Positions 10,181 through 13,647 of a DNA stretch of 64,000 nucleotides are shown here, in pieces. Source of the DNA: Roseivivax lentus (GTDB lineage Bacteria; Pseudomonadota; Alphaproteobacteria; Rhodobacterales; Rhodobacteraceae); the NCBI RefSeq assembly GCF_900156805.1, contig NZ_FTOQ01000005.1:124001-188000 (forward strand). The letters run 5' to 3'. Below the pieces are notes generated by a model. It worked only from the letters and a program-made list of their open reading frames with translations, ran no database searches and was not told the origin of the DNA. Numbering within the stretch: position 1 is the stretch's first letter; every line of letters starts with the position of its first letter. Both the position numbers and the translations under genes were made by a program.

Positions 10181-10291
10181 GATGGCTCTCCGCTGGGCAT
10201 GACAGGTCCGGGGACGCGATAGCCCATCGTACCACGCCCTGCAACGACGCGCTTGACCCGGATGGACGGTCTGCTACTCCGGGGTCCGCTG

Positions 10292-10368
10292 GGGCCTGTA
10301 GCTCAATTGGTTAGAGCAGAGCGCTCATAACGCTTTGGTTGCGGGTTCGAGTCCTGCCGGGCCTACCA
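10292..10368 (+). tRNA. tRNA with CAU anticodon (Met or Ile2)
   Basis: A 77-nt cloverleaf with encoded CCA. The acceptor arms GGGCCTG and CGGGCCT pair, with two G-U pairs. The D arm is GCTC...GAGC, the anticodon stem is GAGCG/CGCTT with loop CTCATAA (anticodon CAT), and the T arm is GCGGG/CCTGC around TTCGAGT. The first pair is G-U, not the C-A mismatch of initiator tRNA, so it is elongator Met or the lysidine-modified Ile2. The variable region (TTGGTTG) looks more like Ile2 but I cannot settle it. Its 3' end is the integration site of the adjacent element. Confidence 0.93.
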
Positions 10369-10370
10369 GC
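10354..10370 (+). repeat. Left attachment repeat (attL) in the tRNA 3' end
   Basis: The 17 bases CTGCCGGGCCTACCAGC overlap the T-arm 3' strand, the acceptor 3' strand and the CCA of the tRNA. They recur exactly at 13422-13438 in the same orientation. The integrase gene begins 175 bp inside. This is the arrangement left when a tyrosine integrase inserts an element into a tRNA gene and rebuilds its 3' end. Confidence 0.9.
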
Positions 10371-10505
10371 TGTGCCACCAACTGCTCTACGATAATAATT
10401 TTTACTGTTATTTCAATTGCTTACAATTGCCGACTCCGCGGGGCATCTATAGAACTCTAAACCCATGCCACCATTTTGTGCCACCTATTGGCGCACTGTG
10501 CCACC
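10371..10505 (+). repeat. Four direct repeats TGTGCCACC between attL and integrase
   Basis: TGTGCCACC occurs at 10371-10379, 10477-10485 and 10497-10505, with a one-base variant CATGCCACC at 10464-10472. The last two are exactly 20 bp apart. They lie between the crossover repeat and the integrase start, where arm-type integrase or excisionase sites are found in P4- and lambda-type elements. The role is inferred from position only. Confidence 0.6.
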
Positions 10506-10544
10506 TGGGCTATAAAGGGAGATCACCATCAACGTGTGCGTCTC

Positions 10545-11759
10545 ATGCCCCTTACCCAGCTCGAATGCGTAAACGCTAAGCCTACAAAGAAACGATATGA
10601 ACGGGCCGACCGAAACGGCTTGTCTTTCGTGGTATGGCCCAACGGTAAGAGAAGGTGGTGTTATCGCTATCGGCTGCAGGGCCAGCAGAAGAGATTTTGG
10701 CTGGGTGACTTCCCGACAGTCGGACTAACGGAAGCGCGCGCGCTGGCAGACGCAGCTGCACTAGCCGTTAAGGGGAACCACAACCCCGCAAGTGTAGATC
10801 TCACTGAACTCGGACCAGACAACTTCCAGACTGTAGCGAAGGCATGGTTTGACAATCAAAAGCACGGGTGGAGCCAAGCTTACGCTACGCGGGTCTGGTC
10901 TCGCATAGACGCTGATTTAAACAGCCAATTCGGCACACGGCCAATAGTTGGGATAACTCGCAAAGATGTTCTTGAGGCACTGCGCGCCATAGAAGAACGC
11001 GGAGCAGTCGACATGGCAAAGCGCGTCAAACAATATGCAGAGAATATTTTTATGTATGCGATGAATGAAGAAATAATCGACGGGAATCCCGCATCTGGAC
11101 TAGAAAAGAGTTTAAAAAAGAATCCTCCAGTAAAACATCATGCCAAGCTCAAAGCCGACGAGCTGCCCACGTTCTTTTCTAGGCTCCACGAATACGAAGG
11201 AGAGTGCGATACCCGAATTGCTTTGAAACTCATCATGCACACTATACTGAGGACTAGTGAACTTTTAGGCATAAAAAAAGAGGATATAGACCTAGAAAAT
11301 CGCTTGCTGAGGTTACCAGCTGCTCGGATGAAGATGGCGCGCGACCATTTGGTTCCACTTACAAACAGTACCGCATCACAGTTTCAGATTCTAATAGATA
11401 GAAGCGATGGTGGGCGGCTTTTCTCGATGAGCTCAAACACCATGATTTATAGCCTTTACAGAATGGGTTACCACTCAAGAGCTACGGTACATGGTTTCCG
11501 CGGGACAGCCTCAACAATTCTTAATGAGTCAGGCCTATGGCGCCCTAACGCAATCGAACGACAGTTGGCTCATGTTAGTCAAAATACAGTGCGAAATGCG
11601 TATAATCACGCTGAGTATCTTCCGGAACGCCGAAAAATGATGAGTTGGTATTCAAACTTCTTGGATCGGTGCGAATATCAAGGCAAGTTACTCTTAGAGA
11701 GCAACCATCAAACTTTGGATTCTGATTTTGAGGACCTAACGGGCGGACTTCTTGACTAA
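10545..11759 (+). CDS. P4-type tyrosine integrase
   Basis: A 404-residue site-specific recombinase. The N-terminal arm-binding domain has the DUF4102-like pattern 'PTKKRYERADRNGLSFVV...GKRRWCYRYRLQGQQKRFWLG'. A central SAM-like core-binding domain follows, then the catalytic domain. Visible catalytic residues are Arg in 'HTILRTSELLGI', His-x-x-Arg in 'VHGFRGTAST', His in 'QLAHVSQNTV' and the Tyr nucleophile in 'VRNAYNHAEYLPERRKMM'. The ATG at 10545 is the best start although the Shine-Dalgarno element is weak; a GTG at 10536 is an alternative. Length and order match integrases that insert into tRNA genes, and the neighbouring attL supports this. All catalytic residues look intact. Confidence 0.93.
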   Translation: MPLTQLECVNAKPTKKRYERADRNGLSFVVWPNGKRRWCYRYRLQGQQKRFWLGDFPTVGLTEARALADAAALAVKGNHNPASVDLTELGPDNFQTVAKAWFDNQKHGWSQAYATRVWSRIDADLNSQFGTRPIVGITRKDVLEALRAIEERGAVDMAKRVKQYAENIFMYAMNEEIIDGNPASGLEKSLKKNPPVKHHAKLKADELPTFFSRLHEYEGECDTRIALKLIMHTILRTSELLGIKKEDIDLENRLLRLPAARMKMARDHLVPLTNSTASQFQILIDRSDGGRLFSMSSNTMIYSLYRMGYHSRATVHGFRGTASTILNESGLWRPNAIERQLAHVSQNTVRNAYNHAEYLPERRKMMSWYSNFLDRCEYQGKLLLESNHQTLDSDFEDLTGGLLD

Positions 11760-11828
11760 CGACTTATTGGAAGCCAACAGAAAAAACCTCAGCAAAGCGT
11801 AAATCTTAAAATTGAAGGAATAATGTTG

Positions 11829-12125
11829 CTAAGCCGCCAGCCTCATACGTTTGCTTTCCTTCAACATCCGATCACGAAGCATACTAGCTACCTGCCGATT
11901 TGCATTGATAACACTCATTCGAGCTTTGACCTCCGAAAAGGAAAACTCAGTCAGCAAAGGCACGAAAGCTGTGTTTACAAAAGATGAAGTTACATTTGGG
12001 ATGTCGATAAAGTCGACCGTAAAGGCTACATTCATACGTAAGCTATCGCGAAGCTTCGAGTAAACCTCGGCTCCCTGTGAGGACGTGTCACAGCTCGAAA
12101 CAATTTGTTTGACGACAATCACCAT
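11829..12125 (-). CDS. STAS-like (DUF4325-type) small protein
   Basis: A 98-residue protein resembling the STAS-like DUF4325 family: a beta strand around 'AFTVDFIDIPNVTSSFVNTAF' followed by a helix with 'FSFSEVKARMSVINANRQVASML'. In this family 'DF-----SSFVN-AF-P' is the core pattern. Such folds act as phosphorylatable or docking partners in partner-switch signalling. The start overlaps the upstream ATPase gene by 7 bp (ATGGTGA) and has a strong GGGAGGAG element, so the two are translated together and probably form a functional pair. The predicted fold is a family-level judgement; the exact role is unknown. Confidence 0.72.
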   Translation of the reverse strand: MVIVVKQIVSSCDTSSQGAEVYSKLRDSLRMNVAFTVDFIDIPNVTSSFVNTAFVPLLTEFSFSEVKARMSVINANRQVASMLRDRMLKESKRMRLAA

Positions 12126-12997
12126 TCGAACTCTCCTCCCTCGTCCTCAAACTCGCTAAATTTGTCCGTGTTGAAGCTCATCTGGATCAGCGTCCCAGGA
12201 CAGTACCCTGAGTATCTGTATGGCACTTTCGTGACGGAATTTCCATTTTTTTCGATCCGAACACCCCCGCCAGACGACTGGCATGACAGTACGCCCCCGA
12301 GATTTTGAACCACATGCACCTGCAGGTAGTACAACCCAACCCCTTGATTTGTTTCTAAACTTTTTGAGGTAAAGCCATCTTCAAATGCGAGTGATATCGC
12401 TTCCTCGTCAGTCAAGTTTTCCCTGACGCGGCCTACCGTCGCTGGTATACCAGAGCCGAAGTCTGCTAAGCACATTTCGAGCCTATGCTCCTGCGGGTAC
12501 CATTGAGCAAAAATACTCCCGACATCGAGTTCAGTATGGTCGGAGATGTTGTTAAAAAGTTCTGAAATGCATGTCCGAAACTCAGCCATCTGCTCCACTG
12601 GCACCCCAGAGCAGGCGGACAGCCATGGTACTAGGGTAAACCCGATCCATCCGTGCGAATCTTGATGGCGAACCTCCATGAGGGGCTGCGTAGTCTGCCG
12701 TGTCGCGCAGTCATCTCTCAGTGTCCGCCCAAGATGTTGCTGAAAGAACTGTGAGTCATCCAAGAACCTGATCGCATCACTGCGTTTGTTCATTCCGATG
12801 TAGCGAACCGTACATCCATGTCTAACCAAGAACCGTGTGAGATTGCTCAAAAACACAATTCCAGACGGGCGCGCAAACCTCAGCCCGGAAAAGTCGAACT
12901 CGACTTCGTCTGGAATTGACTCAAAGCGTCCGAAACTAACTTCAACTTGTTGAAACAGTTCTTCTGCACGGAACTGCCTAGGCAAAATCACACGCAA
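12119..12997 (-). CDS. Fusion of a STAS-like domain with a GHKL (RsbW/histidine-kinase-type) ATPase
   Basis: A 292-residue protein. Residues 1-100 look like a STAS-like domain ('EVEFDFSGLRFARPSGIVFL'). From about residue 130 there is a GHKL ATPase domain: N box 'ELFNNISDHTE' at 146-156, G1 box 'DFGSGIP' at 179-185 and G2 box 'NQGVGLYYL' at 217-225. There is no receiver, transmembrane or phospho-accepting His region, so it is more like an anti-sigma kinase than a sensor kinase. The start is TTG with AAGGAG about 8 bp upstream. It is followed by the DUF4325-like gene with a 7-bp overlap. This is the only cargo of the tRNA-integrated element besides the integrase. Confidence 0.75.
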   Translation of the reverse strand: MRVILPRQFRAEELFQQVEVSFGRFESIPDEVEFDFSGLRFARPSGIVFLSNLTRFLVRHGCTVRYIGMNKRSDAIRFLDDSQFFQQHLGRTLRDDCATRQTTQPLMEVRHQDSHGWIGFTLVPWLSACSGVPVEQMAEFRTCISELFNNISDHTELDVGSIFAQWYPQEHRLEMCLADFGSGIPATVGRVRENLTDEEAISLAFEDGFTSKSLETNQGVGLYYLQVHVVQNLGGVLSCQSSGGGVRIEKNGNSVTKVPYRYSGYCPGTLIQMSFNTDKFSEFEDEGGEFEW

Positions 12998-13000
12998 AGC

Positions 13001-13421
13001 GCTACTCCTTTGACTTTTTTACAAATTATCGGTCGACCGCTTCAAAACACCGCTCGAAAGAACTGTCTACCACCTCAAATCCGCAGGAAATACTGCCTTG
13101 TCCGGCCCCGAACATCCTAGTGCAGCACAGAATTTCGCTTGCCGATATCTGCCATAAGTTATTGTTTTTAAATTTATTTTCCTCTTTACCTCGGAAGAAG
13201 CTTTCTGATCGCAGCAGTCATCGCGACCGGTCACTGCACTTTTTATTTAAGCGCACAAAGAGCGATTCAACCCAGGCTCCCAGAAGACTGCGTTCCAAAC
13301 TTGGACGTTTGGGTAGACTTTGCAGTTTGTCCCATACTGTAACATTCTGACCCAGCTTGCGTGCCCAAAAATCGTTGCCTAAGGACACCTAAGTCATTGA
13401 TTTTTATATGGGTTGTTGCTG
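13001..13421. other. AT-rich non-coding right end of the integrated element
   Basis: About 420 bp upstream of the minus-strand cargo genes. I see no convincing gene; a short plus-strand open frame at 13120-13350 has no recognisable domain and no good ribosome site. The promoter of the two-gene module must lie here. Near the right repeat is CCTAAGGACACCTAAG (13378-13393), a 6-bp direct repeat that could be a protein site. Confidence 0.5.
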
Positions 13422-13438
13422 CTGCCGGGCCTACCAGC
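13422..13438 (+). repeat. Right attachment repeat (attR)
   Basis: An exact 17-bp copy of the tRNA 3' end (CTGCCGGGCCTACCAGC), in the same orientation as the copy at 10354-10370. It carries only the acceptor/T-arm tail with CCA, not a tRNA. Base composition changes back to GC-rich chromosomal DNA just beyond it. Confidence 0.9.
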
Positions 13439-13454
13439 ATTCATTGGCTTTTGC

Positions 13455-13473
13455 GGGCCTAGGCGGCCCTTTT
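13455..13473 (+). terminator. Original tRNA terminator stranded by the insertion
   Basis: GGGCC (13455-13459) and GGCCC (13465-13469) pair around TAGGC and are followed by TTTT. The hairpin begins 17 bp after attR. If the element is removed in thought, it falls just after the tRNA CCA, where a tRNA terminator belongs. Confidence 0.65.
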
Positions 13474-13497
13474 ACGGCTCGCTGTCAGTTGGACCTG

Positions 13498-13647
13498 TCA
13501 CGCTTTCGTGCCGTTCCAGTTTCTCAGTTCAGCGCCCTGCCGGGCGCAGGCCCGCATGATCGCGGCTCCGATGCCGTGCCCTGCCCCGGCCATAATGCAG
13601 GTCTTGGTGTTCAGTCGGAGCAAGATGTTTCTTTCCGTAAAGGGCAT
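13498..13647 (-). pseudogene. N-terminal stub of a short-chain dehydrogenase/reductase
   Basis: A 49-codon open frame reading 'MPFTERNILLRLNTKTCIMA' then 'GAGHGIGAAIMRACARQGAE' and soon a stop. The GxxxGIG pattern with the following helix is the cofactor-binding start of an SDR enzyme (family length about 250). The catalytic Tyr-Lys region is absent, so this is a truncated remnant. It lies at the downstream end of a decaying minus-strand operon next to the element's right end. Confidence 0.65.

What the first reader, a model, noticed from the sequence alone, without database searches (positions are those of the whole stretch)
10354..13438. Minimal tRNA-integrated element whose only cargo is a STAS/GHKL two-gene module
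Exact 17-bp direct repeats of a tRNA 3' end bound 3.07 kb of AT-richer DNA with one intact P4-type integrase and two coupled genes. One encodes a STAS-like domain fused to a GHKL ATPase, the other a DUF4325-like STAS protein. Elements of this type usually carry cargo that pays for itself, such as defence or stress switches. A complete element reduced to integrase plus a partner-switch pair suggests that the pair has a function of its own, for example sensing phage or controlling host transcription. The boundaries and genes are seen directly; the role is inference.
Basis: partly seen in the sequence, partly recalled or inferred. Interest (0 to 1): 0.85.

Follow-up and report, generated by a model that had tools for sequence, protein, structure and literature searches.

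The report
Tiny tRNA element with kinase-substrate switch
A complete 3-kb mobile element sits in a tRNA gene and carries only its integrase plus a two-gene kinase/substrate switch, one of a wide family without known function that often lies at prophage edges and whose published cousins sense DNA damage and fight phages.

Summary
Exact 17-nt repeats (10354-10370, 13422-13438), the only two copies in the assembly, bound a 3,068-bp insert of 48% GC in a 65% GC window. The two same-genus genomes closest at this locus appear to have the uninterrupted site. Cargo: one P4-type integrase and two genes overlapping by 7 nt, K (292 aa, STAS-GHKL) and S (98 aa, bare STAS, DUF4325).

K and S are homologues of the DNA-damage switch pairs CapK/CapS and VapK/VapS (published 2026). 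A profile of 56 S proteins matches solved VapS at E 2.9e-11; the phospho-serine is S47 (Ser/Thr in 110 of 111). The pair belongs to neither system: no HTH, winged helix, VapC toxin or VapC-blocking tail. Its K's form a separate group (93 rows, support 97).

K lies within 3 kb of a predicted provirus end in 27 of 40 contigs (6.4 expected); no neighbouring gene is constant; the pair is lower in GC than its flanks in 55 of 55 loci. Two close relatives sit bare beside housekeeping genes.

Most likely an ssDNA-triggered phage or stress switch acting on a host protein. Kinase pairing is well supported by homology; signal, target and anti-phage role are inferred. New variant of a known kind.

The parts
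10292..10368 (+). tRNA gene (CAT anticodon; called tRNA-Met by ARAGORN; the CTCATAA anticodon loop suggests tRNA-Ile2, recalled) used as attachment site
   Evidence: ARAGORN, Rfam tRNA 67.4 bits
10354..10370 (+). left attachment repeat, tRNA 3' end plus GC
   Evidence: exact 17-nt direct repeat, only two copies in the assembly
10371..10505 (+). three copies of TGTGCCACC (10371, 10477, 10497) between the core and the integrase gene; candidate arm-type integrase sites (inference)
10545..11759 (+). P4-type tyrosine integrase, 404 aa, open; R236, H316, R319, Y353 present (assignment to the catalytic motif is recalled)
   Evidence: Pfam and PHROG, motif positions
11829..12125 (-). S: bare STAS protein (DUF4325, phrog_9989), 98 aa; predicted phospho-acceptor S47; lacks the VapS C-terminal region and the CapS winged helix
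12119..12997 (-). K: STAS-GHKL kinase (phrog_3364), 292 aa, TTG start 7 nt after AAAGGAG; predicted active-site E146, N150, D179 and glycines; aromatic F41; disordered acidic tail ending FEW
12119..12125 (-). 7-nt overlap of K end and S start; in the two-gene clade 89 of 94 relatives overlap, 51 by exactly 7 nt (my start calls)
12998..13421 (.). 424-bp region between K start and right repeat, no convincing gene; presumably holds the K-S promoter (inference)
   Evidence: ORF list; no promoter-like site found there
13422..13438 (+). right attachment repeat; chromosome resumes at 13439
   Evidence: empty-site match in two same-genus genomes

Best explanation
This is a complete, minimal integrative element: integrase-mediated insertion at a tRNA 3' end regenerated the tRNA and left a 17-nt repeat at the far end (supported by anatomy and empty sites; excision not tested). 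Its only cargo is a co-translated kinase/substrate pair of the CapKS/VapKSC superfamily, in a version stripped of the known output parts. Proposed working, by analogy: in quiet cells K and S are made together, and unphosphorylated S either holds K or binds a host protein. When ssDNA appears (phage replication, DNA damage) it binds the STAS/GHKL groove of K near F41, K phosphorylates S on S47, S changes partner, and a host target is freed or blocked, slowing growth or phage. The kinase-substrate pairing is well supported by homology. The ssDNA signal is inferred from CapK (assayed) and VapK (mutant only). The host target and the benefit (phage exclusion, hence carriage at prophage edges) are inference.
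For: Element: repeats, tRNA, integrase, empty site. Homology: a profile of 56 S proteins matches PDB VapS 9z7o at E 2.9e-11 (window S alone only E 0.21); a profile of K matches CheA (best E 4e-6) and SpoIIAB (E 0.009) sequences, and the K model's best fold match is SpoIIAB. S47 aligns with VapS S48, which PMC13373217 showed to be needed. Conservation over 111 pairs: S47 Ser/Thr 110, F49 111, N51 110; K E146, N150, H154, D179 110 each; K41 F or Y in 94. S is next to K in 61 of 70 viral loci, and in the other 9 the contig ends at or within about 110 nt of K. Carriage: 27 of 40 contigs of at least 20 kb have K within 3 kb of an end (6.4 expected; 22 of 34, 5.3 expected, after dropping 7 closely similar or off-clade ones); 9 of 79 genomic loci have a tRNA 3' end facing the pair within 1.5 kb (2.0 expected), 0 facing the wrong way. 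No constant third gene and 0 PIN toxins in 129 orphan-class loci.
Against: No direct evidence of ssDNA sensing, phosphorylation, phage protection or any host target for this clade. The basic residues expected in the ssDNA groove are only partly conserved (positions 169-172; choice of positions is mine). PADLOC shows no consistent linkage to defence genes: no model matches more than 2 of 115 neighbours. Two relatives sit bare beside pncB without a mobile gene, and ordinary cellular genes flank the closest loci. Some copies have K split and S open (L197, L214, L218, L236, L237), or S shortened and K open (L164, L168), so the pair is dispensable in places. IMG/VR provirus ends are predictions. 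Low GC is not specific to this clade: the 17 VapKSC, Bacteroidota and other loci tested are also all lower than their flanks.
Confidence: 0.5

Rival explanations
1. Addiction module: one of K or S is a toxin and the other its antidote, so the pair only stabilises the element, as toxin-antitoxin pairs do.
For: Two overlapping small genes, the only cargo of a 3-kb element; the VapKSC cousin is a toxin-antitoxin system (PMC13373217).
Against: No toxin domain in K or S; no PIN gene in the orphan clade. Loci exist with K split and S open and with S shortened and K open, so neither partner alone looks lethal, although drafts can carry errors and the genes may be silent.
Confidence: 0.15
2. The pair controls the mobile element itself: S (or phosphorylated S) acts on the integrase or the prophage switch, so the element excises when DNA is damaged.
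For: The integrase is the only other protein of this element; an integrase lies within 500 bp in the window, L171, L213 and viral L111, L119, L144 (weak profile scores in L095, L102), and abuts K in L237; CapK answers to DNA damage (PMC13373217).
Against: Integrase within 500 bp in only 2 of 61 orphan genomic loci and anywhere in 10 of 61 (profile for tyrosine integrases, 37 of the 61 loci have over 20 kb); orientation to the integrase varies; bare pairs exist with no integrase found.
Confidence: 0.12
3. Counter-defence or host takeover: S is a decoy substrate, or S feeds into host partner-switch proteins (for example a predicted partner-switch system of Rhodobacter capsulatus that affects gene transfer agent production), to the element's advantage.
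For: Bare S resembles SpoIIAA/RsbV-type antagonists; a partner-switch system affecting RcGTA is reported (PMC3999984, title and start of abstract seen in the listing); the nearest relatives of K are in Rhodobacteraceae and relatives.
Against: K keeps its active-site residues in 110 of 111, so it is not a mere decoy system; the clade spans Bacillota, Pseudomonadota, Bacteroidota and Thermodesulfobacteriota, so a lineage-specific target cannot be the general one.
Confidence: 0.13
4. Eroded VapKSC or CapKS: a decayed copy that lost its output gene and has no function.
For: Toxin, winged helix and VapS tail are all absent; decayed copies occur in some loci.
Against: The two-gene form is one supported group (93 rows, 97) across phyla with near-invariant active sites and a conserved gene junction; decay would not be conserved.
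Confidence: 0.07

Closest known systems
VapKSC (VapK STAS-GHKL kinase, VapS STAS antitoxin, VapC PIN toxin; PMC13373217)
   Same: K architecture without HTH, S homologous over about 85 profile positions with the phospho-serine aligned to VapS S48, gene order K then S
   Different: no VapC; S ends at 98 aa (114-117 in 7 of 8 PIN loci) and lacks the C-terminal region needed to inhibit VapC; K lies outside the PIN-linked group
CapK/CapS (HTH-STAS-GHKL kinase activated by ssDNA; STAS-winged-helix repressor; PMC13373217)
   Same: kinase-substrate logic, conserved Ser, ssDNA sensing proposed
   Different: no HTH on K, no winged helix on S, no adjacent immune operon
SpoIIAB/SpoIIAA and RsbW/RsbV partner switches
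   Same: GHKL kinase plus bare STAS substrate with phospho-Ser; SpoIIAB is the best fold match of K; RsbV and RsbS are among weak fold matches of S
   Different: K carries an extra N-terminal STAS domain; no sigma factor in the element; sits on mobile DNA
P4-type integrases and tRNA-inserted integrative elements
   Same: integrase domains, tRNA 3' end as attB, direct repeat, AT-rich cargo
   Different: only 3.07 kb and two cargo genes; no helper and no excisionase gene recognised
PHROG families 3364 and 9989 (function unknown)
   Same: K and S match them over nearly full length (E 5e-35 and 5e-15)
   Different: no function assigned there; phrog_3364 also recruits fused STAS-GHKL-STAS and longer proteins

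Membership tests
VapKSC | K is STAS-GHKL without N-terminal HTH | tested here: met
   292 aa, STAS-like part from the N-terminus in the AlphaFold2 model, homologue starts aligned
VapKSC | S has conserved Ser/Thr at VapS position 48 | tested here: met
   S47 aligns with VapS S48; Ser/Thr in 110 of 111
VapKSC | S carries the C-terminal region (94-116) that blocks VapC | tested here: not met
   S is 98 aa; 90 of 95 orphan S are 89-103 aa (range 73-122) against 114-117 in 7 of 8 PIN loci, the eighth 99; the extension seen in PIN loci is absent
VapKSC | adjacent PIN-domain VapC gene | tested here: not met
   none in the element; a PIN profile hits 8 of 149 loci and none of the 129 orphan-class loci, nine of which end at or near K
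VapKSC | K falls in the PIN-linked group | tested here: not met
   orphan 93 rows support 97, PIN 9 rows support 98 (quick method, long branches flagged)
CapK/CapS | HTH on K and winged helix on S | tested here: not met
   domain scans and models
CapK/CapS | adjacent immune operon | tested here: not met
   element holds only integrase, S and K
GHKL-STAS partner switch (superfamily) | GHKL active-site residues and phospho-Ser in STAS partner | tested here: met
GHKL-STAS partner switch (superfamily) | phosphorylation of S by K changes its binding partner | not testable with these tools
   needs biochemistry
tRNA-inserted P4-type integrative element | integrase with arm, core and catalytic domains | tested here: met
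tRNA-inserted P4-type integrative element | direct repeat of tRNA 3' end and empty site in relatives | tested here: met
   (empty site in 2 of 15 rows)
tRNA-inserted P4-type integrative element | excises and transfers | not testable with these tools
   needs a strain; no close copy of the integrase was found

The most novel reading that the evidence does not exclude
A cross-phylum family of effector-less sensor switches: a prophage- and element-carried ssDNA-activated kinase with a bare STAS substrate acts on a broadly conserved host protein, giving two-gene phage exclusion without any dedicated toxin, nuclease or DNA-binding part. The acidic, aromatic-ended K tail (EE-hydrophobic-x-W), disordered in the model, would be an ssDNA mimic or SSB-tip-like peptide that keeps K off until real ssDNA displaces it.
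Probability: 0.27. Interest if true: 0.82.

Novelty: new variant of a known kind. Interest (0 to 1): 0.6.

Why it matters
CapKS and VapKSC each have a visible output: a DNA-binding domain or a toxin. This clade keeps the sensor-kinase and its substrate and drops those outputs, yet its active sites are near-invariant; it often lies at prophage edges, occurs in four phyla, and here is the only cargo of a 3-kb element. That element is a natural subtraction experiment: whatever the pair does, it needs at most itself, an integrase and the host. Finding the host protein that S binds would show how a mobile element plugs a damage sensor into the cell, and would give a compact anti-phage or stress module to test. 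The published VapKSC survey kept only loci that contain vapK, vapS and vapC (PMC13373217, Bioinformatics section), so this family would have been filtered out there.

Tried and rejected
Larger island: rejected, only two copies of the repeat exist in the assembly and the right flank resumes as in two same-genus genomes. Old resident gene of this lineage: rejected, K is in 1 of 101 relatives and 2 of 394 family genomes, own genome counted in both. PADLOC DrmA match of K: only the shared GHKL fold, residues 142-253 against a 1,750-position profile. GrwAB/VcSduA (PMC12137116, passages): DUF262 and Shedu systems, unrelated. DefensePredictor (PMC13092281, one passage): an HATPase domain only in a figure legend. 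Sister mini-elements with an adjacent integrase (L171, L213, L144, L237): no flanking repeat of 14 nt or more except a 14-nt match in L144 that begins inside its integrase gene, so element limits there stay open. L221 (18-nt repeat at a tRNA-Asn, 2.54 kb) is a second small insert, with a piece that looks by eye like the end of a serine recombinase (recalled) and no intact integrase seen. L227 (25-nt repeat), L189 (47 nt) and L181 (18 nt) are larger repeat-bounded elements with an integrase. Integrase as obligate partner of S: judged unlikely. Close kin of the integrase: none (best 40-42%; no pattern hit). Promoter and terminator scan: fewer sites than shuffles give. S fold search: only weak matches, none at E 0.001; solved VapS did not appear in it. 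First viral scan with K alone: no relative. Equivalence of K F41 with VapK F54: same column holds F in 7 of 8 PIN loci, but the index in those proteins varies and the Escherichia VapK sequence was not at hand, so not proven.

Earlier sightings in print: PMC7924643 (one passage) lists in Francisella phage KIRK a 293-aa hypothetical protein followed by a 112-aa DUF4325 protein, a few genes from an integrase; PMC9341999 (passages) lists a histidine kinase-like and a STAS-like protein in Paenibacillus larvae prophages. Neither gives a tested function; I did not compare those sequences. That I found no study of the two-gene form rests (open-licence PMC only, no preprints). PMC13373217 was read in its abstract, sections 7, 11, 13, 14, 17 and found passages, not its supplements.


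Full report
OBSERVATION. The 17-nt repeat has exactly two copies in the assembly at up to one mismatch. The tRNA at 10292-10368 is intact. The insert is 48% GC against 65% for the rest of the window. Right of 13438 the sequence resembles what follows the same tRNA in two same-genus genomes, the two most similar at this locus (87% and 83%): scores 44 and 47, shuffle means 20 and 21 with sd about 4, 0 of 200 reach either; the left-flank control scores 29 and 16. Of 17 loci given, 15 gave a row and the other 13 do not match. In six same-genus genomes the DNA beyond the tRNA (about 20 kb in five, 4.8 kb in one) shares no other blastn match with the window at E 1e-10, so the far side varies widely. 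Three TGTGCCACC copies lie between the core and the integrase gene and none elsewhere in 10201-13600, even at one mismatch; they are plausible arm sites, untested.

THE GENES. The integrase is open and full length. K and S overlap by 7 nt and run towards the integrase; the ends of the integrase and S genes are 69 bp apart. K: HATPase_c E 1.5e-5 but just under the Pfam cut-off, STAS_2 only E 0.05, phrog_3364 E 5e-35. AlphaFold2 with 56 sequences gives pLDDT 90 and pTM 0.88, with a STAS-like N-terminal part and a GHKL part; residues 288-292 are disordered (domain reading by eye from the secondary structure). Best PDB fold match: SpoIIAB, E 5e-5. S: DUF4325, model pLDDT 97. The window S alone finds solved VapS only at E 0.21; a profile of 56 S proteins finds it at E 2.9e-11. 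The fold search gave only weak matches, some to STAS domains.

RELATIVES. A viral-contig scan with a mixed alignment gave 70 loci and a genome scan 79, the list being cut at the best 80 of 84; a first viral scan with K alone gave none. Annotated records add Streptococcus prophages such as LYGO9, where the pair lies between lysin and integrase, and a Hymenobacter plasmid where it lies near an integrase. S is next to K in 61 of 70 viral loci; in the other 9 the contig ends at or within about 110 nt of K. Of 111 non-redundant pairs, S position 47 is Ser in 98, Thr in 12 and Pro in 1; F49 is invariant; N51 110; K E146, N150, H154, D179 110 each; K41 is F in 90 and Y in 4. A quick tree of 125 K proteins puts 93 two-gene K's on one side of a branch (97), the 9 PIN-linked K's on another (98) and 8 K's, 7 from Bacteroidota and one viral, on another (99) (long branches are flagged there). 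A PIN profile finds toxins in 8 of 149 loci (L162, L224, L225, L227, L231, L235, L238, L240), none among the 129 loci I class as orphan (L093-L160, L163-L223). S is 89-103 aa in 90 of 95 orphan pairs (range 73-122) and 114-117 in 7 of 8 PIN loci, the eighth being 99. So this clade lacks the VapS tail that PMC13373217 showed to be needed against VapC.

WHERE IT LIVES. I tabulated 50 of the 70 viral contigs, leaving out 19 that I judged near-duplicates and the PIN locus L162. Of the 40 that are at least 20 kb, 27 have K within 3 kb of an end; 6.4 are expected if placement were uniform. Dropping seven more that are closely similar or off-clade leaves 22 of 34 against 5.3. Ends are database predictions. 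In the genomic loci a tRNA 3' end faces the pair within 1.5 kb in 9 of 79 (8 of them orphan; 2.0 expected) and none faces the wrong way. Repeat-bounded inserts were found at L221 (2.54 kb), L227 (VapKSC, 8.3 kb), L189 (14.7 kb) and L181 (17 kb). In 55 of 55 orphan loci with enough flank (6 of 61 dropped) the pair is lower in GC than its flanks, median -0.11, and in 46 it is in the lowest 5% of same-length windows; the 17 other loci tested are also all lower, median -0.07. I scanned 115 immediate neighbours from 60 of the 61 orphan genomic loci, genes called by a simple script. They share no common family: best PHROG count 4 of 115, an endolysin, with several other endolysin PHROGs at 2-3; Pfam at most 3; PADLOC at most 2. 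Against a strict link to mobile DNA: an integrase by my profile anywhere in the locus in 10 of 61; ten neighbours in six of the closest loci gave 7 matches to ordinary cellular families and 3 without a match; and in L163 and L166 the pair is a bare insert directly after pncB, with arfB next (L166) or next but one (L163). L164 also has arfB beside the pair but its contig starts at K. In 29 other pncB loci no K was found; in four of them arfB lies near pncB, 13 bp away in one and about 0.9 kb in three. In the window's class phrog_3364 rings in 25 of 385 genomes; three (own, G340, G425) have K and S close to the window's by my first profiles, the others are fused or more distant forms.

HOW IT PROBABLY WORKS. 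PMC13373217 (parts read are named in Tried and rejected) reports that CapK is activated by ssDNA and phosphorylates CapS on a conserved Ser, and that VapKSC gives about 2-log protection of E. coli against phage Bas42, lost on mutating VapC D28, VapS S48 or VapK F54. By homology K should phosphorylate S on S47 and change its partner. Shown here: homology, residue conservation, gene overlap, no output gene. Inferred: ssDNA as signal, host protein as target, phage or stress benefit. The lack of a constant third gene, and a 3-kb element with only an integrase, point to a host partner; the many loci with no integrase found argue against the integrase.

JUNCTION AND TAIL. K ends in an acidic run, a hydrophobic residue, one residue and Trp (W in 92 of 95 orphan rows), with the S start codon overlapping the Trp codon. 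S overlaps K in 89 of 94 orphan pairs and in 0 of 8 PIN and 0 of 7 Bacteroidota pairs by my start calls. The purine-rich run probably also serves as the ribosome site for S (by eye), so part of this is forced by the overlap. But K's without overlap end in aromatic residues too: FF, LF or YF in 7 of 8 PIN loci, with few acidic residues, and acidic-plus-F ends in most Bacteroidota ones. So a peptide function is possible.

KNOWN OR NEW. It works like CapKS/VapKSC by homology but is a member of neither by the tests above. The published survey kept only loci containing vapC. Such pairs have been listed in print as unnamed phage proteins (PMC7924643, and perhaps PMC9341999). My searches of the open-licence library found no study of the two-gene form. 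I rate it a new variant of a known kind.

Noticed in passing
L006:3584-4930 (+), GenBank MT837999: A single protein with GHKL and a STAS-like end (by eye) lies between genes that look like type I R-M subunits (HsdR-like upstream, HsdM-like downstream; by eye, no search). Fused STAS-GHKL-STAS proteins occur in alphaproteobacterial loci L047-L049, L052, L053, L063, L064.
   Followed up: partly
L227:9642-17957: A VapKSC operon with PIN gene lies at the edge of an 8.3-kb tRNA-Ser element (25-nt repeat) with its own integrase in Pseudomonas boanensis.
   Followed up: partly
L194:10864-11709: Paenibacillus ferrarius has two S genes in tandem after one K, then a tRNA-Arg whose 3' end faces them.
   Followed up: no
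L197, L214, L218, L236, L237; L164, L168: K split into two frames with S open, or S shortened with K open: the pair seems to decay in some hosts.
   Followed up: partly
L163:9941-11154 and L166:9986-11142: In two Rhodobacteraceae genera the pair sits directly after pncB; none of 29 other pncB loci has K, and in four of them arfB lies within 1 kb of pncB.
   Followed up: partly
window 10371-10505: Three direct TGTGCCACC copies between attachment core and integrase gene, candidate arm sites on one side only.
   Followed up: no
L003:5001-7424, L004:4001-4177: Bradyrhizobium plasmids carry K fragments 44-47% identical to the window K, one with an open S, amid transposase genes: likely relics.
   Followed up: partly
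Francisella phage KIRK, as listed in PMC7924643: A 293-aa hypothetical protein followed by a 112-aa DUF4325 protein a few genes from the integrase looks like another K-S pair (one passage; sequences not compared).
   Followed up: no
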